Positions 33,163-50,083 of a stretch of 64,000 nt of DNA are shown here, in pieces. Both the position numbers and the translations under genes were made by a program. Location: positions 1 through 64,000 of the forward strand of contig JAIXOU010000118.1 of the NCBI GenBank assembly GCA_027486585.1, read 5' to 3'. Numbering within the stretch: position 1 is the first letter of the stretch; each line of letters starts with the position of its first letter. Source of the DNA: Verrucomicrobiaceae bacterium (GTDB lineage: Bacteria; Verrucomicrobiota; Verrucomicrobiia; Verrucomicrobiales; Verrucomicrobiaceae). The notes beneath the pieces were generated by a model. It made no database searches. It saw nothing but the letters and a program-made list of their open reading frames with translations, and was not told the DNA's origin.

Positions 33163-34136
33163 AGAGAGCTGAGTTTCCGCCAGGGGAGCTTTTCCAGCAC
33201 ATCACCAAAGCCTAGCCCACCGCCATTGGTATCGTGACTGAGCCAGCCGCCTTTCGCCGAAATGCGCTCAAAAAAGCCATCCGGTTCGAACAGATGCTGG
33301 GTGCTGAGTCCACAGAGATCCACTCGATCACCGATTTCAGATTTGGCGACAGCCGCCTCATATGCCGCGAACATTTGGCCCAAGCCATGATCCATGGCAG
33401 AGGTCAGCACGAGTGGTTTTTCAGGATGTCGCGCAGCCACCGCGCGCCAGTCACGGCGTGCTGGCTTCACGACTACGGCTGAAAAGCCAGCTTCACCATC
33501 ACGCCAGCCTTTGTCCAGGGCCAGGCGCACCTTCCAGCGCTGCTGAGCCTGCTGCCAAAGCTCGGAATGATAGGGGAATGGATCCTCGATCAGATCCAGA
33601 TGCTGGTAAGTCCGCAGCGGCATGAACTCAATGAATTGCGAAAAGCCGCGTGCATCCAGACAGCCATTAAAGTCCACCCGCAGCTTCAGGCCTATGGCTT
33701 CTCCTACCTTGGCGCATTGTTCAAGGAACCCGCGCGTTTCTCCATAATTGGCGAAGCCCTTGGCCTTGAGCGCAGGCCAGCCCTCGCTCACGATCCGCTC
33801 GATCTGCGGCCCAGTCGGCTGCGCAAAACTCCATGAGTAATGACTGCGCGGGATCTCTAGGTCTGCAAATAGGCTGATTCCAGCTTCGCGGGCTGCACCG
33901 TCGATCTCGGCACAGCGCAGGGCCATCTCAGTCACAGGCGTGGTAATTCCCTCAGCCAATCGACGTAGTTGTTCTTCAATGGGGGCATCCCCAAATTCCG
34001 TCCAAGGGTGGATGCAACCGTAGCCAGAATCGACTCGGATAAGTGCCCCAGGGAAAAGTCGCCGGTGGGATGCCGCATTCAGGGCCACACCACTGCGGAG
34101 CAGGTATTCATAGACATAGATCGGGCTGGCTGACAT
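33159..34136 (-). CDS. menC: o-succinylbenzoate synthase
   Basis: A 325-residue enolase-superfamily protein. It has Lys in LKAKGF as the acid-base residue, Asp in RVDFNG, Glu in LIEDPF, Asp/Lys in ALDKGW and Lys in VVVKPARRD, the ligand and catalytic residues of the MenC group. It dehydrates SHCHC to o-succinylbenzoate in the classical menaquinone pathway. Being directly upstream of nothing but downstream of menA (gap 27 bases), it is second in a menA-menC pair. The sequence is divergent, so the assignment leans partly on that neighbour. Confidence 0.88.
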   Translation of the reverse strand: MSASPIYVYEYLLRSGVALNAASHRRLFPGALIRVDSGYGCIHPWTEFGDAPIEEQLRRLAEGITTPVTEMALRCAEIDGAAREAGISLFADLEIPRSHYSWSFAQPTGPQIERIVSEGWPALKAKGFANYGETRGFLEQCAKVGEAIGLKLRVDFNGCLDARGFSQFIEFMPLRTYQHLDLIEDPFPYHSELWQQAQQRWKVRLALDKGWRDGEAGFSAVVVKPARRDWRAVAARHPEKPLVLTSAMDHGLGQMFAAYEAAVAKSEIGDRVDLCGLSTQHLFEPDGFFERISAKGGWLSHDTNGGGLGFGDVLEKLPWRKLSSL

Positions 34137-34163
34137 GTGGGTTCAATACGTCTCCCATTTGCC

Positions 34164-35045
34164 TCATGGCATAGCCGCCATACAGAAAAGTCCGGCAAAC
34201 AGCAGTAAATGCACGCCACTCAGTGCTAATAGGCGATTGTAGCTTGGCCCAGGTGCGGTCGTCCAAAGGCGAATCAGCACGAAAAGCCCCAGAGGCAGCA
34301 CCGCCAGAGGTATGGTGAAAAGAAGAGTATCATCGGTATCGATCCAGTAGAGCCCGATCCCATAAGCTACGGCTAACAGGACTGTGATCTCGATCCTAGC
34401 AAAGGTCACACCGAATCGCGCTGCCAAGGTACGCTTGCCCGTGCTGCGATCTTCCTCAAGGTCTCGCAGATTATTCACCGCGATCAGGATGGTCGAGAGG
34501 CAGCCTATTTGCATCCCTGCCACGACCGCGCCAACCAACCACTCACCGCACTGGACAAAAGCTGAGCCCATCACCGCCACAAAGCCAAAGAACAAGATCA
34601 CAAACAGCTCACCCAATCCCCGATAGGCCAGTGGAGCCGGCCCGCCCGTGTAACCATAGCAAAAATAGAGAGACGGTATGCCGATGATCACAATCGGCAG
34701 TCCGCGCGCGGCGATTAGCGGAATAGACAGAGCCGTAGCTAGTCCAAGCATGACATAGCCCGCCATCATCACCGACTCAGCCCGCACAGCGCCCGCCGCC
34801 GTGATCCGCCTCGGTCCGATCCTCGCCGCCGTATCCATGCCTTGGCGGAAGTCCAGAGCATCGTTGAACCAATTCGTTGCGATTTGAAGCGCGATTGTGC
34901 TAGCCAAGGTAAAGACCAGCAGCCACCACTCGATCTCATGTCCGCTCAGCCTAGCTCCCAGGATGAAACCCACAAACACAGGCGCGATAGCCGCACCGAG
35001 GGTTTTCGGGCGTGCAGCTTGGATCCAATCAATCAAACGAGGCAT
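34164..35045 (-). CDS. menA: 1,4-dihydroxy-2-naphthoate polyprenyltransferase
   Basis: A 293-residue UbiA-superfamily membrane enzyme with about eight or nine helices. The first Asp-rich motif is NWFNDALDFRQGMD and the second NNLRDLEEDRSTGKRTLAARFG. RPKTLGAAIAPVFVG at the N terminus is typical of MenA. It prenylates DHNA on the way to menaquinone. The ATG at 35045 fits the family; an open frame upstream (to 35174) is not supported. Confidence 0.94.
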   Translation of the reverse strand: MPRLIDWIQAARPKTLGAAIAPVFVGFILGARLSGHEIEWWLLVFTLASTIALQIATNWFNDALDFRQGMDTAARIGPRRITAAGAVRAESVMMAGYVMLGLATALSIPLIAARGLPIVIIGIPSLYFCYGYTGGPAPLAYRGLGELFVILFFGFVAVMGSAFVQCGEWLVGAVVAGMQIGCLSTILIAVNNLRDLEEDRSTGKRTLAARFGVTFARIEITVLLAVAYGIGLYWIDTDDTLLFTIPLAVLPLGLFVLIRLWTTAPGPSYNRLLALSGVHLLLFAGLFCMAAMP

Positions 35046-35289
35046 AGTGGTAAAAAAAGTTAAAGGCCACCGATCAGAGCACAGAGCCGATGTTTTGTCT
35101 TCCTCGGATGTGTGAGCTGGGTTCGTGCTAGCGGTGCTGATAAAAAGGCTTTTAGCCACATTTGAGTCAAACAATCCACGCCCATCAAAGCGAAAGAGAG
35201 GACATGTTATTTTGAAAGCTTCGGAAATATAATTTCTGGAAAAGTACCTACGTACGGCATGATTTGTTCAAAGTGAGCAGATTAAGGTC

Positions 35290-35318
35290 TTGCCAAATTA
35301 TTGAAAATTGAATTTAAT
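35290..35318 (+). promoter_or_regulatory. sigma-70-like promoter of the giant gene
   Basis: TTGCCA (35290-35295) is five of six to the -35 consensus, followed by exactly 17 bases and TTTAAT (35313-35318), five of six to the -10 consensus. Transcription would start near 35325, about 60 bases before the ATG. A 6-bp dyad overlaps the -10. Confidence 0.7.
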
Positions 35319-35335
35319 TCAAAACTAAATTAATT

Positions 35336-35361
35336 CGCTGGCCAACCACCAGCGATTTTTT
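35336..35361 (+). promoter_or_regulatory. hairpin with T run in the leader of the giant gene
   Basis: CGCTGG (35336-35341) pairs with CCAGCG (35349-35354) around a 7-base loop, followed by A and six T. It begins about 12 bases after the predicted transcription start and ends 23 bases before the ATG. It looks like a terminator/attenuator, or a 5'-stabilising hairpin. Confidence 0.65.
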
Positions 35362-35384
35362 CCAGTCATACCTTTGTTACAACC

Positions 35385-38300
35385 ATGTCACATCAAGCAT
35401 CTCCGACCCTTCGTCTCATGCGCCAAAAACGCCTCTGGATCAGCAGTTCCCTCGCTGGTCTGATGGCTCTTTGGCAGATTGGCCAGCCTTTGCAGGCAGC
35501 GACTTTTTACTGGAATACTGACGGCAGTGACACGGGTAACTTGATTGATGGCACTAATTTGGGCGGCATTGGTGCTTGGGACACCGCGACTTCAAATTGG
35601 TGGCCAGTGCCTGCTGGGGCGCTAACGACTTGGGGGAATACCAGTTCTGACATCGCCATTTTCAGTGGTCCATCGGTTAGCATCCCGACTCTGAATACGG
35701 TGACGCTTAGCAGCGGCATTACTGCTAACCAGCTCCGATTTAATCGTAGTGGCTACGCACTCACAGGGGGTGATTTGACTCTAGCTGGCACGGCGCCAAC
35801 CCTACAGGTGAACTTTGCTGAAACCGCAACTATCAACAGTCAGCTTTTAGGAACAGCGGGGTTGACCATGGCTGGCGGCGGCACCGTTCGGTTGACCAAT
35901 GCTTCGAATAGCTATACCGGCACCACTACGATCAATAGTGGTATTCTCTCGATTTCTAATGCGGCAGCGCTTGGGACAGACGCTTCCGCGATTGTTCTCA
36001 ATGGTTCAGCGACTCGTGGCTTTGGCGGTGGGGCGCTGATGCTGGAGGGTGATGTGACGCTTTCACGGGGAGTGACTATGCAGGGCGTTGGGCCTGTGCC
36101 TGCGACGGGTTCAGCGCTGATGAGCGTGGGCAACAACACGATCACCGGACCAGTGACGAATGGGAGCGCAACTGTGAACACTGCGCTCACTTCGGCTGGC
36201 GGCCGCCTGACTCTGGCGGATGTGACGCTAGGGGGCACGGCGGGCACCATCTTCATGACTTTTGGGACAACTAATTCGGTTGGCGCTGGCAGTTATGCGA
36301 TCACGGGGACGCTCGCGAGCGTGGTGAGTGCGCAGGGTACTATTCAGAAAGTCGGTGCGGGAACCTTGTTCCTTAGGCCGTCGAACGCCGCTGGTTATAG
36401 CGGCATCTTCCAGGTGAGTACTGGTTCGATCCGTGTGACGGATACTGCGGCACTGGGCACGAGTGCGGCGGCCAATGCGATTGATTTAAATGGTGGTATG
36501 TTGGAACTTCGCACGGACACGCCGACCTTTGCGAGTGCCAAGCGCGTCAACTTGAACAACGGTAGCGGTGCGACGGATTTGCTGCTGGATCGTTCACCTG
36601 GCGGAACCGGATTGAACCAGACGGTGACTTTTGCCAATTTCGATTATGACTCTGGGGAAACAATCGCGATCAATACACGCAACGGTTACGGGTCAACATT
36701 CACAGCGGCGACGGCCATTGGAGATGGTGCAGGGGACACGACGCTGACGAACAACGGTAATGGTCTTATCACCTATGGTGGCACGGTTTGGGGAAATACT
36801 AACGCGACGGCGCGCACATTGACTGTCAATGGTACAGGGAATACATTGATGTCGGGAAGCATCACAGCTTCTGGTGCCAATCATTTGCTGGTGAAAAGCG
36901 GTACGGGCGCGGTCACGATTCAGGGAACCGCCAGCACTTATCTTGGTGCGACCACGATCAGCGGCGGTGCATTGACGGTGACGGACTTCCGCACGCTCAA
37001 TGGGCATAGCACGGGAACGAATACTGCAGCGATTAACATCGGCAGTACGGCGACTGCGGGTATTCTCACGATCGGTTCACAGACAGCAGCGACAGCGGCT
37101 GGCCTAACGTTGCTGACTGGCAAGTCAATCAATCTCGCTGGCACGAGTGGGGGGGCGACGATCAATGCTAACCAGGCTTTCGCGGCACCAGTAATCATTG
37201 GCAGTGTGACGGCCACAGGTGCCGGTGCCAAGAGCTTGACATTGGGCGGCACGAGCACTCAGGAGAATATTATTTCTGGAGTGATTCCAGACAGCACATC
37301 TGCAACGTCATTGGTGAAGGCCGACGCGGGACTTTGGGCCTTGTCTGGAACGAATACCTTTACGGGTTCCACGACGATTAGCGGGGGCACCTTGAGGCTC
37401 AAAGCCAACGCGGGGACGACTTCGACGGTTCTCGGTGAGGCGGCAGGCAATACAGTGGTTTTCAACGCCAATACCACAACAGGCACCGCAGGGGGGACGC
37501 TTGAGTTGGTCGGTTTTTCAGGCTCCGCGACGACCGAGACTCTAGGGGCGCTGACGCCGACAGCGGGAGCGGTGACGGTCAAATTGACCGGTAACAGCGT
37601 GTCTCCATCCGCTACCAATCTTGCTTTCACATCCTTGGGGGCGACGACGGGGGCATCCAGCGTGAACTTCAGTACCACCGGCGGAAGTAGTGGCGTGGTG
37701 ACATTGACCGGTCAGGCAACCACGACGGCGACAACGCTGCCTGGGACGGCGAACTTCCTCGGTCATTTGTACATCAATGGAGCTGACTTCGCGGCGATCA
37801 ACGGCTCGGCCCAAGTGATCCAGCCGGTCTATGGAACGACGACCGGGTTTGTGAACGCGCCCAGCTCATTGACAGCTGCCAATCACAATTTGCTGACGGG
37901 TAACTTTACGATGGCTACGACAACCGCTGTGTCTTCATTGAAAGCCACTACGCAGACACTGACGCTGGGTGCAGGTCTTACGGTCAATCTTGGTGCCATC
38001 CTGCAGTCAGGGGGCACCGCTACGATTCAGAGCGACAGCTCCACGGCGCGGGCAATTGTGGGCAGTGTTGCTGGGGTGAACGTTGCTATTCGCGTTGACG
38101 GTGCCGGTGACGTGCTCAATCTGGGAGCACTTAATGCTCCAGTGATTATTTCTTCGACCACGACTGCTGGCTTGACGAAGAACGGAGCGGGAACGCTCGT
38201 CATCAATGGCATCAATGCGCAAACTGGCGCGACGACCATTAACGAAGGAACGATTAAGTTGGGTGTCAACTCGGCCCGTCTGAGCGGTGCCAATGCTGCG

Positions 38301-41300
38301 CTGGTGATTCGCCAGGGGGCGACGCTGGACCTCAACGGCCAGTCCTCGGGGACTGCCATCGGAGCCTTTGATGGCGCTGGCACCGTGACCAACAGCAGCG
38401 CGACACCTGCCACGCTCGTCCTAGGTAATGCGACAACGGGTGCAGGAACCTTCGCTGGCATTATTCAAGATGGCGCGGGCGTGATGAACGTGACCAAAAC
38501 CGGTACGACCGGCGCACCGACCTGGAGCGGCCTGAACACCTATACGGGGGTCACCACCATTGGTACGTCGATCTCGACCGGGTTCGTCGTGTCGGTTCCC
38601 TCATTGGCCAACATTGGAACCGCCAGCGGCATTGGCCGCGGCACGAGCACCAGTGACGTCACCAACGCGGCCAGCCTAGTGTTCGGTGGCAGTGCCACCA
38701 CGGGCATCAACTACACCGGCACGACCTCGGTGAGCATCGACCGTCTCTTCACCTTGAACAGCGGCACGGCAGGTGGTGGGGCTCAGATCGCCAACTCTTC
38801 GGCCAACAACTCCACGCTGATCTTTAACAAGACCAACGCACTTAGCTTCGGCACGGGTGCCACAGTGGCCCAGACTCTGACTCTGGGTGGCAGCTCCACG
38901 GGGGACAATCAGATCAACCTGCAGCTTGTGGATAATAGTGCTCTTGCGACCGGTGTGACCAAGATCGGTGCGGGCTTGTGGATTCTTGGCAACTCTTCCA
39001 ATAACTACACTGGCACGACCCAAATTGGCTCAACCACATCGGCCGGCGGCGTGCTGCAAGCGGCAGGCAATGCGCTTTCTCCAAACAGCCCGCTCTTGCT
39101 CGGTGGCACGACTGGTGGTGGCGTGTTCCAAAGCAGTGGCAATTTCACGCGTAATATTACGGCAACGCCAACGTCGGGTGCGGGCACTGTCACGTTCAAC
39201 TCCACGCTAACATCTGGCGCAGTCGGTTTCGCAGCTTCCGACAGCAAGCTTGTCGTGGCTATCGGTGGTATAGGATCTCCAACGGCACTGACCTGGGGCA
39301 GTGGTGGGTTCATGGGCGTGACTGGCACATCAACGGGTGCCTTGGTTTTGAGTTCTACCACGGCACTTTCTGAAATCGAGTTCCGCAATGCGATTGATCT
39401 CAACGGAGCCAACCGCACGATCCAGGTTGATGACAATGGCAATACGTTTGCGGACTACGCCACCATTACTGGTGTCATCAGTGGCACAGGCGGCACGACG
39501 GGTCTTACCAAAACCAGTGGTGGGACTCTGCAACTCTTTGGAGCCAACACTTACTCGGGTGTCACGGCAGTCACCTCGGCCAGCACGCTCGTGGTCAACT
39601 CCTTGGGCAACAGTGCCAATCCGGGCGTTGGCACCAGCCTTGGCACCAGCACTAACGCTAATCTTTCGACCAACGCGCTGACCTTGGGCAACGGCGGCAC
39701 CACGGCTGGCATCCTGCAATACGTCGGCCCGGGTGAAACCAGCGACCGCATGATCCGCATCAATACCACGACGGGCAGCACGCAGATCCACGCCGATGGC
39801 GCCGGACCACTGGTCTTGACCAACGTGCTCAACGACATGGCAGCCGGCAATAAGACACTCTTCCTGCGCGGATCGAACTCTCAGGGCAACATAATCACCA
39901 GCGTACTGGCTGACAATACTGGAACGTTAGGCATCACCGTGGACAGTGCCGCTACTTGGATACTCTCCGGAGCCAACACTTACACGGGGAACACGGACCT
40001 CACTGGCGGCGCTCTTGGCGCAGGGAACGACGCTGCCTTTGGAACCGGCAGCTTGCGCGTGCGCAATGGTTCACTGTTTGCCTATGGTGCAGATCGCACC
40101 ATCACCAATCCCCTGGCGGACACCTCCACCACGACTGCGATCGGCTCAGCCTTCATCGGAGACTACAGCCTGAATCTGTCAGGAACATGGACGCACAGCA
40201 ACACCACTGCAAACCAGACCATCACCAATGGTATCGTATCAGGCAAGACGCTTACCTTGGGAGGGGACTCGCAGTGGAATTCCATCGCCTCAACACGCAC
40301 GCTGACATTCAACGGTTCTGGAGACACGATCTTCAATGGTAACATCACCACTAGCACGGCATTCGGCGTCAGTTTGACTTATTCTGGCACGGGCAGCCTT
40401 ACCTTGGGTGGCACGATCAATCCAGGTGGTGGAGTTTTGACTGTCTCGAGTGGCACTCTAAAACTTGGTGCAAGTGATCGCGTTCCTGACGGTGCGGGTG
40501 CGGCGGATGTGACGATCAGTCCGGCTGCCACCATCAGCGCAACTTTGGACCTCAACGGCAAGAACGAGACCATCAATGGCCTCTCAGCGAACCCCGCTGG
40601 TAATGTCACGATCAATAACAGTTCCGCGACTGCCTCGACGTTCACCGTGGGGGGGAACAATGGAATCGTCACTTTTGGCGGTGGTGCAGGTGCCAATTCA
40701 ATCACCCAGACCGGTGGTGGAGTCATCAATTTGACGAAGATCGGCACCGGTTCTGCCAGCTTTACAGGCACTCTCGGCAATACGGGAACCACTACGGTGA
40801 ACGGTGGCGTTCTGAATTACAACAGCCCAACGGGCACCACGAGCCTCAATGTGGGAACTGGTGGCACACTCAATCTCAAGGGTGGTCTTACCACCCCAGC
40901 AAACCTAACTTCTGTTACTGTGGCGGGCGGGGGGGCCCTGAGCTTTGCGGATGGCGCTGGCACGCCATTCAATAATCTCACCACGCTCAGTCTAGGTCTC
41001 GGAACTGGCACTGCCACTCTCGAACTCGAAGCGGGCGACCTTGGTACAGATACTCTGACCTTGCTTAATCCGAATGTGGCGACAACCGCCAACACCATCA
41101 ACCTACTGGTGAAGGACTTTGACATCACCAGTGGCAATACCTACAACCTGCTGGTTGCTCCTGGCGGTGGTCTTCTTACCGGCGGTGGATCTACCGGGAA
41201 TTACACCTTTAGCCTCGCCGGATACTCGGGTTCCACCCTCTTTCAGTCCGACAATCTTGTCTCGATCACCGCCGGGACCCTGATCACCAGTGACGTTTAC

Positions 41301-44300
41301 TGGAACGGCTTCACCTCCCCGGCTACTACTTCTTGGAACACCATTGATGGCGGTGGTAACACTAATTTCTCCACCGATCTGGCCGGCACGATCCAAGCCA
41401 CCACGCTTCCTGGCAAAGGCCAGAAAGTCATTTTCCAGGCGGACAACCTCACTGGCGGCGCAGCTCTGAGCACTACGCTGGAACAGCCGTTTAAGGTCAA
41501 TGCTCTTGAGTTCAAGCCCAGCACTGCTCCGGCTAATACACCTCTTTCGGTGACCATCGCTCCCGGCAGCACGAGCACCAACTCGCTTACCCTCGTGCCA
41601 TCCTCTTCCGCCGATGGCATCAATTTGAAGACTGGTGGTGCTCCGTTAGTAAGCATCTCTGCTCCTGTTGTTGCTGCTCTCGCGCAGACTTGGACAACGG
41701 CGAATGCTGTCGCCCTGACTGGCGGCACCAGTACCACGACTACATCCATTACTGTCGCCGACACCACGGGGCTTCGCGCTGGGATGACGATCACCGGCAA
41801 TGGCATCGCCGCTGGGACCACCATTGTTTCCGTTGACAGCTTGACTGGCCTTACGCTCTCTGCGGCAACGACCGCAGCGACGGGGCAAAGTTACTATGCA
41901 GCCCAGCAGCTTAATATCTCGGGTGGTCTTTCCGGAACGGGGAACGTGACCAAAGCAGGCTTTGGTAAAGTCGTTCTTAGTGCAGCAAGCACCGGCTACA
42001 CTGGTACCTTCGGCGTCAGTGGCGGCATTGCAGAAGTCACACTTGCAACTGCCCTCAGCGGAGTCGGTGCGACTGCCAACAGCGGAGCCACCATTGCCAT
42101 CAATTCTGGAGGAACGTTCTACTACAATAATCTCACGGCAGACACCGGCGCTGGTGCTTTGAACTTCCCGAATCCGATGACGTTGAATGGCGGCACATTG
42201 GGTGCTGGCGGTGGAACTCGCTTCTACAGCGGTAATGTCAATGTCAGCGCTAACTCTTCCATTAACCTCCGCGATCTGGCAAATGCTACAACTAGCACAA
42301 CCTCGCGCAACATCACGCTCAGCGGCAACATCAGCGGCACGGGTGGTATTGCCTTGGACAGCATTGACACCCCCACTGCTGGCAACGCTGAGACAGGCAC
42401 GCTGACAATCAACAATGGCAGCAGCACCTGGAACGGACCGCTTTCGTTTACCCGAGGCACGGTGGTGTTCACCAACGCGGCTGGAAGCGGGACGGCAACA
42501 CCGTACGTTGGCTTTAACGGGGACATCAAATTCAACCAGTTCGGACGTGTGATCTATCGCAACGTGGACGGTGCTAGCCTGAATCGCACCGCCGCCATCA
42601 GCTTTGCTGCGGGGGCTCTGGGCGAGTTCAGCGTTGACAATCTCGCAGCAACGCTTGCCTCCAATTACACCGTGACGCAGAGCGGCCTGATCACCCTCGG
42701 CTTGGGAGGCACTGGAGCCACGGCCCGGTTCAACCTAGCAGATGCGGCCAGTAATTTGATCATTAACGGAGGGGTTGTCCTCAACGGCAACAGCAGCATC
42801 AGCGTGGAAGGTGGAGACGCGGACTCGCTGGTGTCCATCAACACTACTGGCATCTCCGGCACCGGCAATCTCGCCATCAACGACGAGGCTGGTGCTTGGG
42901 CCGCCACCAGCACCCGCCTAGCCATCAACGCTGCCAGCACGTTCACCGGCAACACCACCCTCAATGAAGGCACCCTCATTCTCGGACACAAGGACGCCCT
43001 TAGCATCGGCAGTTTAACCATAACGGGCGCGAGCAGCCTGCAGGCAGGTGTCGATCTTTCTGCGGGTGGAAGCGGACCAGCACCGAATGCTTTGACTCTG
43101 AGCAATAATCTGACAGTTGCTGGAAGTAACAATCTCACCTTCTCCGGAACCTTCACCGGTACTGGCGGAAATGCGGATCGCACGCTCACCAACAGTCTCA
43201 CTGCTGGCACCCTCGTTCTGAGTGGCACCACCATCAACATCGGTGCCACCGGCAATACCGCCGGCCGCACGCTCACGATCAACGGGGCTGGCAACACGGA
43301 GATCACCGGCCAGATCGTGAATAACACGGCCTTTGCCAATGCGCTCACCAAGAGCGGGACGGGCACACTCACTCTCTCGGGCACAGGCAGTAGCTATACT
43401 GGAGCGACAAATGTCAATGCAGGTATTCTAAAGGTCGGGGCGAATGGCGGCTTGTCCAGCACCAGCGCAGTCACGGTGAATCCAAATGCCACAGGAGCAA
43501 CGGCAACGCTCGACCTTAATGGCTTTAATGCCACGGTCTCGGCCCTCACGATCGGTGGAACAGGACAGACATCCACGAGTGTCGCACTTGTTCAGACCGG
43601 CGTAGGCACACTCACGCTCGGCGGCAATGTCGCTACGAGCGCCACAGGAAATCCAACCAACACGCCGCTTATCACTGGAAATCTTTCCCTTGGAGCGTCT
43701 ACTCGGACGTTCACCATTGCCAATAGCACAGGTTCGGCGGTTGATCTCGATGTCCAGGCAGTTATCTCCGGCGCGGGTGGAATCACCAAGGCAGGTGCTG
43801 GTGTTCTTCAGCTCTCCAATGTAAATACTTACACCGGAGCAACGACGATTAGTCCAGCAGCAGCAGCAAGTTTGGGCGTCATTCTCGCCACGGCATACAA
43901 TGCACTCGGCACGGGAGCAGTGACAACCGTGTTCACTTCGGGTGCCACCACGGGACAGATTCAACTCTCGGGGGGAATCACTCTCGGTAATAGCAGCTTC
44001 ACTACCTCGGGTGTCGGCTCAGACGGCACGACCAATGGTGTCATCCGTAGCGTCAGCGGCTCGAACATTATTTCCGGCCCCCTCAACATGACGGGTGGCG
44101 GCGGTGCCAGCACCTACCGTGCGGATACGGGAGCTTCACTCACGTTCAATGGCAATGTCGGTGGTGTTGGCACAAATGTTAACCGAATCGTCAATCTCGT
44201 GGGTGGCGGTAACTTCGTTTTTAATGGAAATATTACCAACACCAACGATGCAACGGTGTCCACGGTAGGACTTGATTCTGGCAACACAGGGACAACCACT

Positions 44301-46700
44301 TTGGCTGGTAATAATACGTACACTCTTGCTACGACAGTGCAAAGCGGTAGCACCTTGATCGCTGGTTCAACAACTGGATTTAGCTCTGCCTCAGCAACCA
44401 CTGTCGCCGGCACACTTCGTTTAAACGGTTTTAGCAACTCGGTTGCCTCCCTTGCGGGTGTAGGCACTGTCGAAAATGCCAATGCAACAGGAGCCATTTT
44501 GTCCTCTGCTGATTTTTCCAGTTTCAGTGGTCTGATTCAAGACGGCACTGGTGGGGGTTCTCTTGGCATCACTAAGACTGGCGCAGGCACTTCTACTCTT
44601 GCAGGTTCGAATACTTTCTCTGGAAAAACGACCGTTGCTAATGGCACACTCTCCATTGCTTCGATTGATGCCGTAGCTTCCAACGCCCAGCCTCTCGGTA
44701 CCAACGCCGATCTAGATTTGGGTGTGGCTGCTACCTCTTCGGGGCGCCTGCGTTACACTGGTGCAGCCACGACTCTTAGCAAAAACATCAACGCGCTCGG
44801 TAATGGCAACGACACAATCGAGAACGCCGGCTCCGGTCTTCTCACCTTGACAGGTACCATCACCAAGGCTGGCACGACGCTTACCCTCAATGGCGGCTCC
44901 TCCGGTCTCTATGTCGGTGGTTTGATCGTTGGCGCGCCAGCGGCCTCTGACCTCATTATTGCTGGAGGCACAGTTACCCTTGACAACGCCAACACTTACA
45001 ATGGCCCGACCTACCTGAATGCCGGAACGCTCAACATCAACAATGCCAGTGCCATCAGCACCGGAGCCTTCAACATCAATGGAGGCACGATTGATAACAC
45101 CAGCGGTTCAGCCATTACTCTGACGAACAATAATCCCCTGAATATCACTTCAAACTTCACCTTCACAGGTACGAATAGTCTGAATCTGGGCACAGGTACA
45201 GTCACCTTGGATGCGAATCGCACCGTCACCGTCACAGCGAATACGCTCACCATCGGTGGTGCTATCAGTGGTGCCTTTAGCCTGACAGGCACAGGAGCTG
45301 GCACGCTGCTCCTTACAGGTGCTAGCACTTACACGGGCACCACGACCGCTGTAACGGGTTCGACGATCAGCGTCGGTGGCAATGGGTCCTTGGGTGATAC
45401 ATCCTCGGGAACGGTCATTGATCCTGGTGCCAGCTTGGCGCTGAATAACGTTCTCTATACCGATGCAGAACCCTTGACCATCAATGGGACAGGCGTTGGC
45501 AGTGGCGGAGCCTTCCGCACTACTGGAACAAGCAGTTTTGCTGGAACAATCACTGCAGCTACCAATGCGACCATTAATGCAGCTGGTACGCTTAGCCTCA
45601 CAGGTGGTTTAGTGAAAAACGGCACGACTCTGACTCTGGGTGGAACTGGTACCTATAACATATCCAGCGCAGGCATCAGCGGTTCTAGCGCTAATTCTGA
45701 CCTTGTCGTGGATGCTGCCACCGTTAATCTCGGCGTCGCTAGCACCTACAACGGCCCAACGTTCATCCGCAACGGCGGCACTATCAATGCTAATGTCGCT
45801 AACGCACTTCCAACATCCATCGCCCGCACGGCCGTCACCATGGACGATACTGGCTCTGGTAGCTCTACTCTCGGTCTTGGGTCCAATCAAAGCGTCGCTT
45901 CTTTGACGGGTGCAGCGACTTCTCAAATCCTCGTAGGTGCCAACCAGCTCACCGTTGGTGCATCCGGTTCGGGTTCCAGTAATTTTGCTGGCTCCATCAT
46001 TGGCACGGGTGGCAGCATCGTGAAGGACGGGACCAATACGCAGACCTTCAGCGGAGCTAACACTTACACGGGGGGCACGACCGTTAGTGATGGTACCCTG
46101 AATGTCACCAACACCACTGGATCTGCTACTGGATCAGGAACAGTGACGGTGGGCACTTCCGGCACGCTTGCAGGAACTGGTAAAGTGGAGGCAGCTGCAA
46201 ACAACTACATCTACATCAATGGTACGCTGCAAGTCGGTGACAGCACACTGGGTGTCGCTACCGCCTCCACTCTCGATGTCAAAACCAGCGGCTCTGGCAG
46301 CCTAGTTCTGGGTTCAGCCAGTGTCCTGAAATTTGACCTCTTTTCGGGTGCTGGTTTGGGCGACAGCTCGGCCATTGCAAGCGCAGCGGACCAAATCAGA
46401 CTCTTTGGTTCACTCGATGCCGCTACGACACCAGGCTCCACCTTGCTTCTGGCTTATCAGGGTGCTGGCGTCTTCGCAGCTGGGGATATGTGGAAACTCT
46501 TTGATCTCACCGGACCTGGCACGATCACTGGTGCTTTTAACGTTGACTATTCTGGTCTTGGTCTTGGACCTATGCTTGGTGCTGAATTTGACAATATTAC
46601 TGGTGTCCTAAGCATCGTTACCGTCCCAGAACCAAGCCGTGCTCTCCTTTATCTGATCGGCATCATGGGAATCCTCTTGCGCCGCCGTCGCCGAGAATAG
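35385..46700 (+). CDS. giant PATR-repeat surface protein with PEP-CTERM signal
   Basis: A 3771-residue exported protein. A long signal peptide (about residues 1-38, ending PLQA) is followed by beta-helix passenger sequence made of autotransporter-associated beta-strand repeats: I count about 20 by eye, of the form ANTYTGxTTVxxGTLxV (for example near nt 35905, 37353, 38998, 39974, 42940, 43388, 44989, 45322 and 46060). There is no outer-membrane beta-barrel; instead the C terminus is VPEPSRALLYLIGIMGILL then RRRRRE, a PEP-CTERM signal for exosortase. A second entry-like module begins near residue 1968. Extremely Gly/Thr/Ala/Ser-rich. It is probably an adhesin or cell-surface fibre; the ligand is unknown. 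Confidence 0.93.
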   Translation: MSHQASPTLRLMRQKRLWISSSLAGLMALWQIGQPLQAATFYWNTDGSDTGNLIDGTNLGGIGAWDTATSNWWPVPAGALTTWGNTSSDIAIFSGPSVSIPTLNTVTLSSGITANQLRFNRSGYALTGGDLTLAGTAPTLQVNFAETATINSQLLGTAGLTMAGGGTVRLTNASNSYTGTTTINSGILSISNAAALGTDASAIVLNGSATRGFGGGALMLEGDVTLSRGVTMQGVGPVPATGSALMSVGNNTITGPVTNGSATVNTALTSAGGRLTLADVTLGGTAGTIFMTFGTTNSVGAGSYAITGTLASVVSAQGTIQKVGAGTLFLRPSNAAGYSGIFQVSTGSIRVTDTAALGTSAAANAIDLNGGMLELRTDTPTFASAKRVNLNNGSGATDLLLDRSPGGTGLNQTVTFANFDYDSGETIAINTRNGYGSTFTAATAIGDGAGDTTLTNNGNGLITYGGTVWGNTNATARTLTVNGTGNTLMSGSITASGANHLLVKSGTGAVTIQGTASTYLGATTISGGALTVTDFRTLNGHSTGTNTAAINIGSTATAGILTIGSQTAATAAGLTLLTGKSINLAGTSGGATINANQAFAAPVIIGSVTATGAGAKSLTLGGTSTQENIISGVIPDSTSATSLVKADAGLWALSGTNTFTGSTTISGGTLRLKANAGTTSTVLGEAAGNTVVFNANTTTGTAGGTLELVGFSGSATTETLGALTPTAGAVTVKLTGNSVSPSATNLAFTSLGATTGASSVNFSTTGGSSGVVTLTGQATTTATTLPGTANFLGHLYINGADFAAINGSAQVIQPVYGTTTGFVNAPSSLTAANHNLLTGNFTMATTTAVSSLKATTQTLTLGAGLTVNLGAILQSGGTATIQSDSSTARAIVGSVAGVNVAIRVDGAGDVLNLGALNAPVIISSTTTAGLTKNGAGTLVINGINAQTGATTINEGTIKLGVNSARLSGANAALVIRQGATLDLNGQSSGTAIGAFDGAGTVTNSSATPATLVLGNATTGAGTFAGIIQDGAGVMNVTKTGTTGAPTWSGLNTYTGVTTIGTSISTGFVVSVPSLANIGTASGIGRGTSTSDVTNAASLVFGGSATTGINYTGTTSVSIDRLFTLNSGTAGGGAQIANSSANNSTLIFNKTNALSFGTGATVAQTLTLGGSSTGDNQINLQLVDNSALATGVTKIGAGLWILGNSSNNYTGTTQIGSTTSAGGVLQAAGNALSPNSPLLLGGTTGGGVFQSSGNFTRNITATPTSGAGTVTFNSTLTSGAVGFAASDSKLVVAIGGIGSPTALTWGSGGFMGVTGTSTGALVLSSTTALSEIEFRNAIDLNGANRTIQVDDNGNTFADYATITGVISGTGGTTGLTKTSGGTLQLFGANTYSGVTAVTSASTLVVNSLGNSANPGVGTSLGTSTNANLSTNALTLGNGGTTAGILQYVGPGETSDRMIRINTTTGSTQIHADGAGPLVLTNVLNDMAAGNKTLFLRGSNSQGNIITSVLADNTGTLGITVDSAATWILSGANTYTGNTDLTGGALGAGNDAAFGTGSLRVRNGSLFAYGADRTITNPLADTSTTTAIGSAFIGDYSLNLSGTWTHSNTTANQTITNGIVSGKTLTLGGDSQWNSIASTRTLTFNGSGDTIFNGNITTSTAFGVSLTYSGTGSLTLGGTINPGGGVLTVSSGTLKLGASDRVPDGAGAADVTISPAATISATLDLNGKNETINGLSANPAGNVTINNSSATASTFTVGGNNGIVTFGGGAGANSITQTGGGVINLTKIGTGSASFTGTLGNTGTTTVNGGVLNYNSPTGTTSLNVGTGGTLNLKGGLTTPANLTSVTVAGGGALSFADGAGTPFNNLTTLSLGLGTGTATLELEAGDLGTDTLTLLNPNVATTANTINLLVKDFDITSGNTYNLLVAPGGGLLTGGGSTGNYTFSLAGYSGSTLFQSDNLVSITAGTLITSDVYWNGFTSPATTSWNTIDGGGNTNFSTDLAGTIQATTLPGKGQKVIFQADNLTGGAALSTTLEQPFKVNALEFKPSTAPANTPLSVTIAPGSTSTNSLTLVPSSSADGINLKTGGAPLVSISAPVVAALAQTWTTANAVALTGGTSTTTTSITVADTTGLRAGMTITGNGIAAGTTIVSVDSLTGLTLSAATTAATGQSYYAAQQLNISGGLSGTGNVTKAGFGKVVLSAASTGYTGTFGVSGGIAEVTLATALSGVGATANSGATIAINSGGTFYYNNLTADTGAGALNFPNPMTLNGGTLGAGGGTRFYSGNVNVSANSSINLRDLANATTSTTSRNITLSGNISGTGGIALDSIDTPTAGNAETGTLTINNGSSTWNGPLSFTRGTVVFTNAAGSGTATPYVGFNGDIKFNQFGRVIYRNVDGASLNRTAAISFAAGALGEFSVDNLAATLASNYTVTQSGLITLGLGGTGATARFNLADAASNLIINGGVVLNGNSSISVEGGDADSLVSINTTGISGTGNLAINDEAGAWAATSTRLAINAASTFTGNTTLNEGTLILGHKDALSIGSLTITGASSLQAGVDLSAGGSGPAPNALTLSNNLTVAGSNNLTFSGTFTGTGGNADRTLTNSLTAGTLVLSGTTINIGATGNTAGRTLTINGAGNTEITGQIVNNTAFANALTKSGTGTLTLSGTGSSYTGATNVNAGILKVGANGGLSSTSAVTVNPNATGATATLDLNGFNATVSALTIGGTGQTSTSVALVQTGVGTLTLGGNVATSATGNPTNTPLITGNLSLGASTRTFTIANSTGSAVDLDVQAVISGAGGITKAGAGVLQLSNVNTYTGATTISPAAAASLGVILATAYNALGTGAVTTVFTSGATTGQIQLSGGITLGNSSFTTSGVGSDGTTNGVIRSVSGSNIISGPLNMTGGGGASTYRADTGASLTFNGNVGGVGTNVNRIVNLVGGGNFVFNGNITNTNDATVSTVGLDSGNTGTTTLAGNNTYTLATTVQSGSTLIAGSTTGFSSASATTVAGTLRLNGFSNSVASLAGVGTVENANATGAILSSADFSSFSGLIQDGTGGGSLGITKTGAGTSTLAGSNTFSGKTTVANGTLSIASIDAVASNAQPLGTNADLDLGVAATSSGRLRYTGAATTLSKNINALGNGNDTIENAGSGLLTLTGTITKAGTTLTLNGGSSGLYVGGLIVGAPAASDLIIAGGTVTLDNANTYNGPTYLNAGTLNINNASAISTGAFNINGGTIDNTSGSAITLTNNNPLNITSNFTFTGTNSLNLGTGTVTLDANRTVTVTANTLTIGGAISGAFSLTGTGAGTLLLTGASTYTGTTTAVTGSTISVGGNGSLGDTSSGTVIDPGASLALNNVLYTDAEPLTINGTGVGSGGAFRTTGTSSFAGTITAATNATINAAGTLSLTGGLVKNGTTLTLGGTGTYNISSAGISGSSANSDLVVDAATVNLGVASTYNGPTFIRNGGTINANVANALPTSIARTAVTMDDTGSGSSTLGLGSNQSVASLTGAATSQILVGANQLTVGASGSGSSNFAGSIIGTGGSIVKDGTNTQTFSGANTYTGGTTVSDGTLNVTNTTGSATGSGTVTVGTSGTLAGTGKVEAAANNYIYINGTLQVGDSTLGVATASTLDVKTSGSGSLVLGSASVLKFDLFSGAGLGDSSAIASAADQIRLFGSLDAATTPGSTLLLAYQGAGVFAAGDMWKLFDLTGPGTITGAFNVDYSGLGLGPMLGAEFDNITGVLSIVTVPEPSRALLYLIGIMGILLRRRRRE

Positions 46701-46720
46701 AGCATTTTTAAAAATCTTGA

Positions 46721-46757
46721 AATGGCCCAGCATTTAATTGCTGGGCCATTTTCTTTT
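46721..46757 (+). terminator. strong intrinsic terminator after the giant gene
   Basis: A perfect 12-bp stem (46721-46732 with 46739-46750) around the loop TTTAAT, followed by TTCTTTTT. It closes the giant transcript and separates it from the coiled-coil gene. Confidence 0.92.
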
Positions 46758-46855
46758 TCATCTTGTCCTAGAACTTCCTGAGCATTCAGTTCAGATATGC
46801 TTTACAGGAGGCCATCTTTGTCCAAATCATCACGCCCTTTTCTGACAACACTGCA

Positions 46856-48232
46856 ATGACTACTAAGCTCGATCCAAAATTCACCGCTCTCCTGACCGAT
46901 ACTGCTCAGAAACTGCAATCCCTAGATGTGCTGCCACGGATTTTGGCGGATGCTGCATCCGACTTATCAGCGGCCAGTCTTGATCTCTGTGAGCGCTTGA
47001 TGTCTTTCAGTGCTCAGTTGAATGCAGCCATGGAAGCGAAGGTCACCTTTGATCTAGCTGAAAAAGCTGCACTCCTTGCTGCCAAAGAACAAGCCGCAGC
47101 AGACAAGGCCGCGGCTATTGCACAGGCTGCCGCTGAGAAGGAAGCCGCGCGAATCGCAGCTGCAGAATTGAAGGCGAAACAGCTCGCTGAAAAAGAAGCG
47201 GCTCGAATTGCCAAAGAGCAGGCCGACGCCGAGAAAGCCGCTGCTAAAGCACAGGCACTGGCTGAGAAGGAGGCTGCGCGAATTGCAGCTGCAGAGGCAA
47301 AAGCCCAAGCGCTTGCAGAAAAGGAAGCTGCTCGAATTGCCAAGGAGCAGGCCGATGCAGAGAAGGCTGCTGCAAAAGCCCAGGCACTTGCTGAGAAGGA
47401 AGCAGCAAAGGTTGCCGCAGAACAGGCCAAGGCCCAAGCTTTAGCTGCGAAGGAAGCCGCCAAAGCACAAGCATTGGCAGAAAAGGAAGCTTTCTTAGCC
47501 GCCGCTGCTGAATTGAAAGCCAAGCAACTGGCCGAAAAAGCTGCCATCATGGCGGCCAAGGAGCAAGCGGCCGCTGAAAAGGCTGCTGCAATTGCTCAGG
47601 CTATCGCCGAAAAAGAAGCTGCTAAGCAGGCTGCGGCTGAGGCTAAGGCCAAAGCCCTTGCTGAGAAAGAAGCTGCCCGCCTCGCCAAAGAACAAGCTGA
47701 CGCCGAAAAAGCCGCAGCTAAGGCCCAAGCTCTAGCTGAAAAAGAAGCTGCCAAGAAAGCCGCTGAGGAAGCCAAAGCATTAGCTCTTGCCGAGAAAGAA
47801 GCTGCCCGAATCGCCAAAGAACAAGCCGATGCCGAAAAAGCTGCGGCAAAAGCCCAAGCTCTCGCCGAACAGCTCGCCGCCAAAGAAGCTTCGGCGGCTG
47901 CTAAAGCTCAAGCTTTGGCGGAGAAAGAAGCCATCAAAGCAGCTGCAGCTGAACTGAAGGCCAAGCAGTTGGCGGAAAAAGAAGCGATCCGGCTCGAAAA
48001 AGAAAGGCAGGCTGCTGAACTTGCGGCAGAAAAAGCGGCCCAAGCGGCCGAGCGTCAAAAGGAGGCTAAAGCCGCCGAAGAAGCCAAGGCTAAACGTGCC
48101 GAAGCCTACGCAAAAGTCGTGGCTGAACACGAAGCCAAAATGCGCGCCCGCCAAGCGGCTGCATCCGCACAACTTGCCGCCGAAAAGGCAGCCCTACTAG
48201 CCGAAGAGAAGAAGCGGGCTGCGAAGAAGTGA
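46856..48232 (+). CDS. Ala/Lys/Glu-rich repetitive coiled-coil protein
   Basis: A 458-residue protein with no signal peptide. A non-repetitive N-terminal domain of about 65 residues (TALLTDTAQKLQSLDVLPRI) precedes about 370 residues of continuous helix built on AEKEAARIAKEQADAEKAAA-like repeats. The core EQADAEKAAAKAQALAE occurs four times, in two pairs each spaced 43 residues, which fits mixed heptads and hendecads (3x7 + 2x11). The C terminus is basic (EEKKRAAKK). The N domain resembles granule-associated phasin-like helices in feel, but I claim no family. TolA-like composition is not evidence for a TolA role. Confidence 0.85.
   Translation: MTTKLDPKFTALLTDTAQKLQSLDVLPRILADAASDLSAASLDLCERLMSFSAQLNAAMEAKVTFDLAEKAALLAAKEQAAADKAAAIAQAAAEKEAARIAAAELKAKQLAEKEAARIAKEQADAEKAAAKAQALAEKEAARIAAAEAKAQALAEKEAARIAKEQADAEKAAAKAQALAEKEAAKVAAEQAKAQALAAKEAAKAQALAEKEAFLAAAAELKAKQLAEKAAIMAAKEQAAAEKAAAIAQAIAEKEAAKQAAAEAKAKALAEKEAARLAKEQADAEKAAAKAQALAEKEAAKKAAEEAKALALAEKEAARIAKEQADAEKAAAKAQALAEQLAAKEASAAAKAQALAEKEAIKAAAAELKAKQLAEKEAIRLEKERQAAELAAEKAAQAAERQKEAKAAEEAKAKRAEAYAKVVAEHEAKMRARQAAASAQLAAEKAALLAEEKKRAAKK
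46898..48232 (+). repeat. 43-residue coiled-coil repeat pairs in the Ala-rich protein
   Basis: The protein-level repeat is regular, yet the DNA copies differ at many third positions (for example Ala as GCC, GCT, GCA in the same slot). The repeats are therefore old and held by selection on the protein. Confidence 0.7.
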
Positions 48233-48268
48233 TTTGAATAAACTCAGGCATTCGTTGAAAACTGCGCC

Positions 48269-48514
48269 ATGATGGCTGCTATGAGCATCGGAACAAAAAA
48301 TCGGCTAAATCAGACCGGCACTACCTGCAAAACCCATCTGCGTGAGAAGTATGTGCAGCATTTGGCACTCGTTGAGGAATTCATAGTGGAGCTTGAAGGT
48401 TCTGGGAAAAGTCATGATCCCACACGCTGGACGAAGTTTACCGATGCGAAGCATAGCACCTCCGAAATGCTACAACGTGTGGATGCTGCTTTTGACGCTT
48501 GGATGAACCCCTGA
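48269..48514 (+). CDS. small hypothetical protein
   Basis: An 81-residue soluble protein with no recognised domain. The middle is helix-like (LREKYVQHLALVEEFIVELE) and the end carries Trp/Phe (VDAAFDAWMNP). It starts at 48269, or at the ATG at 48281. It lies 36 bases after the coiled-coil gene and 15 before an amidase gene on the same strand, which favours a real gene. Codon use looks like its neighbours. Confidence 0.6.
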   Translation: MMAAMSIGTKNRLNQTGTTCKTHLREKYVQHLALVEEFIVELEGSGKSHDPTRWTKFTDAKHSTSEMLQRVDAAFDAWMNP

Positions 48515-48529
48515 TTAGTCCGCTCTGTT

Positions 48530-50083
48530 ATGAAGCGGCGTCACTTCATTTTGAGTAGCTCGGTAGCAGCTGTAGTGGGCTGTGATCGGCCTTCTGCGAT
48601 GCCTGATTTGCAGAAGTTTTCGATGTCAGATGCGCTGGATGAATTGCAGAAGGGAAAGCTGAGTTCAGCCCAGTTGATGCAACATTATCTTCAGCGACTA
48701 GAGGCGCTGGATCGTACAGGACCAGAACTGAGGTCTGTCATCGAGCTGCATCCTGAAGCCTTAAAGATGGCTGCGCGCGCTGATGTTAAAAAGACAAACG
48801 GTTCACTGCATGGGCTGCCAATTCTGGTCAAGGATAACATCGAAACCGCAGACGAGCTGTTGACTACGGCGGGATCTTTGGCTTTAGTGGAAGCTGCACG
48901 ACCCCAGCACGACGCTGAAATCATCAAGCGTCTGCGAGCAGCTGGTGCGCTGATTTTTGGCAAAACGAATCTCAGTGAATGGGCGAATATCCGCAGTCGA
49001 GATTCATCCAGTGGCTGGAGTGCGCGTGGTGGCTTAACGAGAAACCCGCATCGGCTTAGCCATAGTGCCAGTGGTTCTAGCAGCGGCTCAGCCGTGGCTG
49101 TTGCTGCGGGTTTTTGTGCAGCGGCCATTGGCACGGAGACGAATGGATCGATCATTAGCCCGGCTAGTGCTTGTGGTATTGTCGGACTCAAGCCGACGTT
49201 GGGAAAAGTCAGTCGCAGTGGCATCATCCCGATTTCCCATTGGCAGGATACAGCTGGGCCGATGACACGAACCGTGAGAGACGCAGCATTGCTGATGAAC
49301 GTGCTTTCGGGGTATGATGCGCGTGATCCACAATCGGCAGAGGTCTCTCTTTCAGAGTACGTTGATCACACGGCTTTCATGGGGACAGAGGCGTTGCGTG
49401 GCGTCCGTCTTGGGGTCGTGCGCGATCTATCTGGGGACCATTTTGGCGTGCAGGCTTTGTTTGATCAGGCTCTGAGTCAGCTGCGTGCAGCGGGCGCGGT
49501 GATCGTTGATCCGATCACTCTGCGGAATCATCGCAAAGCCAGTGGCTTGGCATGGAGGTGTTTGCTGACAGAGTTTCGCTCAGACATCAACGCTTATTTA
49601 ATCATGCGTGGTGGTGCGCTGAATTCACTGGCTGATGTCATTGCTTTCAATGAGGAGAATCGAGAGGCAGAGATGCCCTTCTTCGGTCAGGATTTATTTG
49701 AGGAAGCCGAGAGTCGATGCACCGATGAGATCTTGGCTGAGGCTGTTGAATTAAGAGCACTCGCTCGCAGATTGGCAGGTCCAGAAGGCATTGATCAAGC
49801 TCTCCGTGAGCATCGTTTAAACGCCTTGATTTGTCCGACCAATGATCCGATTCAGCGCATCACTTTGGATCGTGGGGATGATCATGTGCGCGTTGCCAGT
49901 AGCCCTGCTGCCGTGGCAGGTTATCCGCATTTGACCGTCCCTATGGGGCAGGTGGATGGATTGCCGATTGGGCTGAGTTTCTTCGGTGCTGCTTGGTCTG
50001 AACCTCAGCTTTTAGCCTATGGAGATGCTTTTGAACGACAGATGCCCTCTTGGACGAAACGCCTGCCGCTTATGAAGCCATGA
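48530..50083 (+). CDS. exported amidase-signature hydrolase (lipoprotein)
   Basis: A 517-residue amidase-signature enzyme. The catalytic Ser-cisSer-Lys triad is Lys101 (LVKDNIE), Ser183 (in SGSSSGSA) and Ser207 (TETNGSIISPA). The N terminus begins MKRRHFILSSSVAAVVGC: twin Arg plus a lipobox-like VVGC (Cys18), so it is probably a Tat- or Sec-exported lipoprotein. The substrate is an amide, possibly a cell-wall or peptide fragment, but this is open. It overlaps the end of the SNF2 gene by 14 bases. Confidence 0.9.
   Translation: MKRRHFILSSSVAAVVGCDRPSAMPDLQKFSMSDALDELQKGKLSSAQLMQHYLQRLEALDRTGPELRSVIELHPEALKMAARADVKKTNGSLHGLPILVKDNIETADELLTTAGSLALVEAARPQHDAEIIKRLRAAGALIFGKTNLSEWANIRSRDSSSGWSARGGLTRNPHRLSHSASGSSSGSAVAVAAGFCAAAIGTETNGSIISPASACGIVGLKPTLGKVSRSGIIPISHWQDTAGPMTRTVRDAALLMNVLSGYDARDPQSAEVSLSEYVDHTAFMGTEALRGVRLGVVRDLSGDHFGVQALFDQALSQLRAAGAVIVDPITLRNHRKASGLAWRCLLTEFRSDINAYLIMRGGALNSLADVIAFNEENREAEMPFFGQDLFEEAESRCTDEILAEAVELRALARRLAGPEGIDQALREHRLNALICPTNDPIQRITLDRGDDHVRVASSPAAVAGYPHLTVPMGQVDGLPIGLSFFGAAWSEPQLLAYGDAFERQMPSWTKRLPLMKP

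What the first reader, a model, noticed from the sequence alone, without database searches (positions are those of the whole stretch)
35385..46700. 3771-residue PATR protein anchored by PEP-CTERM instead of a beta-barrel
PATR repeats were named from autotransporters, yet this protein has no barrel and ends in a PEP-CTERM tail. It therefore needs another way through the outer membrane and an exosortase-type anchor. It may form a very long beta-helical fibre.
Basis: partly seen in the sequence, partly recalled or inferred. Interest (0 to 1): 0.6.

Follow-up and report, generated by a model that had tools for sequence, protein, structure and literature searches.

The report
Swappable giant beta-helix surface fibre gene
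This gene makes a very long repetitive protein, probably a surface or matrix fibre, that ends in a known bacterial sorting tag. The design is routine in its bacterial family, but the long middle of the gene appears to be exchanged between related genomes while both ends stay the same.

Summary
In detail: window 35385-46700 encodes 3771 aa with a signal peptide, about 14-16 PATR repeats, no autotransporter barrel, and a C-terminal PEP-CTERM tag.

The pairing is not an anomaly. The organism is a Prosthecobacter-like member of the Verrucomicrobiaceae. Of 16 PATR proteins found in its genome, 10 end in PEP-CTERM and only one has a barrel. A profile of the C-terminal cap plus PEP-CTERM tail hits 50 of 50 Verrucomicrobiaceae genomes, in reading frames of up to 14,657 aa. 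So this is a member of a known kind: an exosortase-sorted beta-solenoid.

"Anchored by PEP-CTERM" overstates it. In published models the tail is a temporary inner-membrane tether that exosortase removes; the outer-membrane route and final anchor are unknown.

What is unexpected is the evolution. In a close relative the locus keeps its flanks and first ~22 codons (94% nt identity) and its 3' end (88%), but the region between shows no nt similarity. Another orthologue pair shows the same; a third pair is 96% identical throughout, a control. In a third genome the gene is missing. Passenger exchange is my best reading; misassembly of draft genomes remains possible.

The parts
35385..46700 (+). CDS of the PATR / PEP-CTERM protein, 3771 aa plus stop
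35385..35498 (+). predicted Sec signal peptide, residues 1-38; C37 in the same genome carries a near-identical one, and the first ~22 codons are shared with the relative G312
   Evidence: predicted helix at residues 19-33
35499..46127 (+). PATR-bearing passenger, residues 39-3581, about 14-16 scattered PATR motifs, predicted beta-solenoid at both modelled ends
35452..42868 (+). variable block, about residues 23-2495: no nucleotide similarity at the same locus in G312 although the flanks are 94% and 88% identical
44694..46072 (+). segment 81% nucleotide-identical to the genome's own 8110-aa paralogue on contig C57, consistent with exchange between paralogues
   Evidence: 78-93% protein identity
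46128..46622 (+). conserved C-terminal cap of the passenger, residues 3582-3746, shared by all ten PEP-CTERM PATR proteins and not detected in the barrel protein
46623..46694 (+). PEP-CTERM sorting tag, residues 3747-3770: VPEP, hydrophobic stretch, arginine cluster
   Evidence: (TIGR02595)
46720..46758 (+). intrinsic-terminator-like hairpin (arms 46720-46732 and 46739-46751) followed by a T-rich run, just after the gene
   Evidence: read directly; not scored with the terminator tool
35101..46744 (+). segment (gene with its own promoter region and terminator) replaced by about 55 bp at the same place in genome G295

Best explanation
It is one of about ten paralogous exosortase substrates in this Verrucomicrobiaceae genome. 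Most likely mechanism: the signal peptide exports the chain by Sec (inferred). The C-terminal hydrophobic stretch and arginine cluster hold it in the inner membrane (inferred from the family). One of the two exosortases cuts at the PEP motif and may pass the protein to a carrier (inferred). The PATR passenger folds into a long beta-solenoid (predicted for both modelled ends) that ends up as an adhesive or matrix fibre associated with exopolysaccharide (inferred). How it crosses the outer membrane is open; the genome holds GspD-like secretins and Wza-type polysaccharide exporters as candidates. In evolution, export and sorting ends are kept while the passenger between them is exchanged by recombination with related genes, so that one locus can show different fibres (the pattern is shown by comparison of draft genomes; the mechanism is inferred).
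For: Signal peptide, PATR and PEP-CTERM in one frame. Two exosortases over the family cut-off, with Cys231, Arg276 and His307 identical in both; one sits among glycosyltransferases, acyltransferases and a MurJ-like flippase. Ten of 16 PATR proteins share the cap and tail. The cap+tail profile hits 50/50 family genomes while the barrel family is in 31/50. In 288 phylum genomes 113 of 114 profile-positive ones have an exosortase, against 105 of 174 others. Solenoid match: Z 16.2 to EtpA, 13.2 to TibA, 11.3 to antigen 43b. Passenger exchange.
Against: No experiment shows export, cutting or surface location of this protein. The gene has no exosortase or secretion gene beside it. TIGR02595 alone is near its cut-off. 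The fold models have modest confidence (pLDDT 66 and 69, alignments of 6 and 3 sequences), Foldseek itself gives no match at E below 0.001, and residues 761-3039 were not modelled. Many of the phylum hits outside the family cover mainly the tail, so that exosortase association partly restates the known PEP-CTERM/EpsH link. All exchange evidence is from draft assemblies.
Confidence: 0.7

Rival explanations
1. The protein is exported by Sec and cut by exosortase but stays in the periplasm or on the inner membrane as an envelope scaffold; it never crosses the outer membrane.
For: No dedicated outer-membrane partner lies beside the gene. In Akkermansia more PEP-CTERM protein was found in intracellular than in outer-membrane fractions (PMC4960237); two cyanobacterial PEP-CTERM proteins are abundant in the periplasm (PMC12188702).
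Against: Several of the closest solved folds are surface or secreted adhesins, a rapidly exchanged passenger fits an exposed part better, and a frame of up to 14,657 aa would be very large for the periplasm. All indirect.
Confidence: 0.17
2. It is a true type V autotransporter or two-partner substrate whose barrel was lost or lies elsewhere.
For: PATR is found in many autotransporter passengers (PMC9977779); the genome has one PF03797 protein and one ShlB-type transporter.
Against: No barrel in the chain; the tail is conserved in ten paralogues and across species in place of a barrel; there is one ShlB-type protein in the genome and it is not beside this gene; the cap is not found in the barrel protein.
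Confidence: 0.03
3. The passenger differences between genomes are assembly chimaeras: repeat families from draft metagenome assemblies were joined wrongly.
For: The genomes compared are fragmented drafts, and paralogues share stretches of 80-93% identity, the setting in which misassembly arises.
Against: Two loci show the same pattern with both ends on one contig (this gene and C50/G312 C87), and the C80/G312 C96 pair of the same family in the same two assemblies is colinear at 95.8% over 14.3 kb. The empty site in G295 is a third, separate assembly.
Confidence: 0.2
4. The passenger divergence is fast vertical change of repeats (slippage, expansion, relaxed constraint), without exchange between genes.
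For: Orthologue lengths differ (3771 against about 4615 aa), and repeats can expand and shrink.
Against: Changes are block-like: identity drops from 94% to none within the signal peptide; the passenger's best matches (up to 88%) lie in another genome at loci not shown to be syntenic, and part of G312's passenger resembles the C37 paralogue better than its own positional partner.
Confidence: 0.15

Closest known systems
PEP-CTERM / exosortase (EpsH) sorting system, Haft et al. 2006 (PMC1569441)
   Same: N-terminal signal peptide, C-terminal PEP motif, hydrophobic stretch and basic cluster, many substrates per genome, exosortase in an exopolysaccharide-type locus; the domain was first seen in Verrucomicrobium spinosum, with 65 copies.
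   Different: Substrates there are mostly described as diverse with few recognisable homology domains; here a large share is one family of PATR solenoids, some of them giant.
PATR / autotransporter-associated beta strand repeat (PF12951, TIGR02601)
   Same: Same repeat, same predicted beta-helix.
   Different: The repeats sit in a chain with a sorting tag and no C-terminal barrel.
Type Va autotransporter adhesins (antigen 43, TibA, AIDA-I type)
   Same: Predicted beta-solenoid passenger with matching folds.
   Different: No PF03797 barrel, so no self-contained outer-membrane passage; much longer chain.
Two-partner secreted exoprotein EtpA (PDB 8vbb)
   Same: Best structural match of the C-terminal block, Z 16.2, rmsd 6.2 over 459 residues.
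   Different: No TPS signal was identified and no ShlB-type partner gene lies beside this one.

Membership tests
PEP-CTERM exosortase substrates | C-terminal PEP motif, transmembrane stretch and basic cluster (TIGR02595) | tested here: met
   residues 3747-3770, 17.6 bits, cut-off 16; own-family tail model E about 1e-14 (this protein is in that model)
PEP-CTERM exosortase substrates | N-terminal signal peptide | tested here: met
   read from sequence and predicted helix 19-33; no signal-peptide program was available
PEP-CTERM exosortase substrates | exosortase encoded in the same genome | tested here: met
   two matches over the TIGR02602 cut-off; Cys, Arg and His aligned in both
PEP-CTERM exosortase substrates | cutting at the PEP motif and transfer | not testable with these tools
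   needs mass spectrometry of the mature C-terminus
PATR repeat proteins | matches PF12951 / TIGR02601 | tested here: met
   E 2.2e-38 and 1.6e-41
PATR repeat proteins | beta-helix fold of the repeat region | tested here: inconclusive
   AlphaFold2 gives a beta-solenoid at modest confidence (pLDDT 66 and 69) for residues 1-760 and 3040-3771 only
Type Va autotransporter | C-terminal 12-strand barrel (PF03797) | tested here: not met
   no PF03797 match in the protein; C-terminus predicted helical
Two-partner secretion substrate (TpsA) | N-terminal TPS domain and a TpsB partner gene | tested here: inconclusive
   no haemagglutination-type domain in the Pfam scan; one ShlB-type protein elsewhere in the genome, its neighbours not analysed

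The most novel reading that the evidence does not exclude
In Verrucomicrobiaceae the PATR/PEP-CTERM genes form a repertoire of exchangeable surface fibres. Each locus keeps its start (promoter and signal peptide) and its end (cap and sorting tag), while recombination between loci and strains replaces the multi-kilobase passenger, and loci can be empty. This would be a fibre-diversifying system built on exosortase sorting.
Probability: 0.5. Interest if true: 0.6.

Novelty: new member of a known kind. Interest (0 to 1): 0.42.

Why it matters
Published work leaves open how PEP-CTERM proteins leave the cell and what they do. This genome offers an internal comparison: the same kind of repeat passenger with a PEP-CTERM tail (ten genes), with a barrel (one gene) and with other ends (five genes). 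If passenger exchange is real, these proteins are among the fast-changing surface parts of common freshwater bacteria, a likely contact point for phages, grazers or neighbours. Frames of 10,000-14,657 aa with signal peptide and tail would put some of them among the very large bacterial proteins.

Tried and rejected
The papers library has no paper holding both 'PEP-CTERM' and 'autotransporter-associated beta strand repeat', nor 'giant proteins' with 'PEP-CTERM'; this is no proof of novelty, since most subscription papers are absent. Direct Foldseek gave no match at E below 0.001 for either block, so the fold claim rests on VIA-align Z for one block and on the predicted strands. A role for neighbouring genes was rejected: they are menaquinone (menC-like, UbiA), pseudouridine synthase, kinase and amidase genes, plus one unknown ORF. 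A typed exosortase assignment was rejected: both score 137-138 bits to XrtD against a cut-off of 400. G337 could not tell the locus state, since similarity stops before the gene and the contig ends within 1 kb. In the genus-wide search I examined only G312, G295 and G337 at the locus in detail; the other genomes are too diverged there to judge.

Full report
1. The observation. The frame at 35385-46700 is real and exact: 3771 aa, no stop inside, no cysteine, 17% Thr and 16% Gly. TIGR02601 and PF12951 match with E 1.6e-41 and 2.2e-38, far beyond chance. The PATR motifs are scattered, 14 by a model built here with a median spacing of 183 residues. The PEP-CTERM model covers residues 3747-3770 at 17.6 bits, just above its cut-off of 16; what makes it secure is that the same tail ends nine paralogues and the relatives' proteins. 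No barrel is found and the model of the last 732 residues ends in a helix.

2. Where it lives. Named relatives fetched with the protein are all Verrucomicrobia, most labelled Verrucomicrobiaceae and two of them Prosthecobacter. The window lies in a 6.5-Mb, 147-contig draft genome. The gene stands alone between a UbiA-type gene on the other strand and an unknown ORF; nothing next to it suggests secretion. A terminator-like hairpin follows it directly.

3. Two exosortases are present, both over the family cut-off. Their alignment has PCSG at Cys231, Arg276 and His307 identical in both, which fits the proposed Cys/Arg/His set (from my knowledge of the family; Haft et al., PMC1569441, describe invariant residues consistent with transpeptidation). 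One lies in a polysaccharide-type locus with glycosyltransferases, two acyltransferases, a MurJ-like flippase and a SIS protein, as in the published PEP-CTERM/EpsH system. Both carry a C-terminal part weakly similar to EpsI and fit no typed subfamily.

4. It is not a one-off. Within this genome I found 16 PATR frames (a lower bound, since only 150 of 302 candidates were scored). Ten end in PEP-CTERM. One, on contig C51, is a classical autotransporter with an ice-binding-like domain, PATR and PF03797. Five end otherwise: C88 and C137 carry Ig or kelch domains, C142 is cut by the contig end after Ig domains, and C84 and C130b share another C-terminus. All ten PEP-CTERM members share a 165-residue cap before the tail; the cap is also found inside C88 and weakly in C142 but not in the barrel protein.

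5. Distribution. A cap-plus-tail profile hits 50 of 50 Verrucomicrobiaceae genomes with 4-63 matches each, while PF03797 is found in 31 of the same 50. In 288 genomes of the phylum 114 match; 113 of these have an exosortase against 105 of 174 others (Fisher p 3e-17, not corrected for kinship). Outside the family many matches cover mainly the tail, so this partly repeats the known link. Frames reach 14,657 aa in G317 and 10,135 aa in G302; I read both through and found signal-peptide-like starts, 41 and 24 PATR motifs and PEP-CTERM tails.

6. Fold. Residues 3040-3771 and 1-760 were modelled with thin alignments (pLDDT 66 and 69). Both are strings of short strands, as in a beta-solenoid. The C-terminal block aligns to EtpA (Z 16.2), TibA (13.2) and antigen 43b (11.3), along with other solenoids such as lyases and tailspikes. 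This supports a solenoid and says nothing on function. Residues 761-3039 were not modelled.

7. Mechanism. Published work on a cyanobacterium proposes Sec export, holding by the PEP-CTERM tail in the inner membrane, removal by exosortase, and passage over the outer membrane by an undefined route, possibly with polysaccharide (PMC12188702). In Aquincola a PEP-CTERM protein affects binding of exopolysaccharide in flocs (PMC9850573). Applied here, the tail is a sorting signal and not the final anchor. Candidate outer-membrane routes in the genome are three GspD-like secretins just under the NCBI cut-off and a weaker fourth, two Amuc_1098-type pilus secretins, Wza-type exporters and one ShlB-type transporter. 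None is linked to this gene by the data.

8. The unexpected part. At the same locus in the relative G312, window 33000-35451 is 94% and 45036-49000 is 88% identical, but 35452-42868 has no detectable nucleotide similarity. The left break lies in the signal-peptide coding region. The passenger's best matches, up to 88% protein identity, are in another genome (L064, L065); the window's flanks give no nucleotide match in those loci, though L065 is cut by a contig end. Part of G312's passenger resembles the C37 paralogue better, and window 44694-46072 is 81% identical to the C57 paralogue. A second pair, C50 and G312 C87, shows the same pattern: 90% at the start, 85% at the end, nothing at that threshold between. 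C37/C63 and C57/C89 share their 3' ends, but the G312 contigs lack the 5' ends. C80/C96 is 95.8% identical over 14.3 kb including the whole 4207-aa gene. That last pair shows that species distance alone does not explain the others. In G295 the flanks abut with about 55 bp between them: the gene is absent, while genes with a similar start lie on other contigs of G295 and G337. I read this as exchange of passengers between constant ends, with gain or loss of loci. Misassembly of repeat families in draft genomes is the main alternative.

9. Novelty. Both the repeat and the tag are curated families, so the protein is a new member of a known kind. The exchange pattern was not searched for exhaustively in the literature and would need long reads before it is called a system.

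Noticed in passing
G317:C102:2274-46247 (L118-L120) and G302:C2:1255114-1285521 (L121, L122): Open frames of 14,657 and 10,135 aa with signal-peptide-like start, PATR repeats and PEP-CTERM tail; one search lists further matches in frames of 10,000-14,400 aa in G300, G303, G309 and G313.
   Followed up: partly
L089:1875-4697 (G000:C51): The only PF03797 protein of the genome is an ice-binding-like domain plus PATR plus barrel.
   Followed up: partly
G000:C88, C137, C142 (L083-L086, L109, L079, L080): PATR giants of 7428, 8889 and at least 6890 aa without PEP-CTERM, carrying Ig and, in C137, kelch and cadherin-like domains; their export signal at the C-terminus is unclear.
   Followed up: partly
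L090:9134-10861 and L091:9958-11652: Two exosortases of 576 and 564 aa with an EpsI-like C-terminal part that fit no typed subfamily (137-138 bits to XrtD, cut-off 400).
   Followed up: partly
window 46856-48232: 458-aa ORF after the PATR gene with no Pfam match and internal repeats; the G295 counterpart is Ala/Lys/Glu-rich. Kept at the same place in G312 and G295.
   Followed up: no
G113 (same order): A complete genome with nine weak cap+tail matches but no TIGR02602 exosortase match; tags without a recognised sorting enzyme, or false matches.
   Followed up: no
L111 (G000:C131), L100: A single ShlB-type two-partner transporter; its substrate was not looked for.
   Followed up: no
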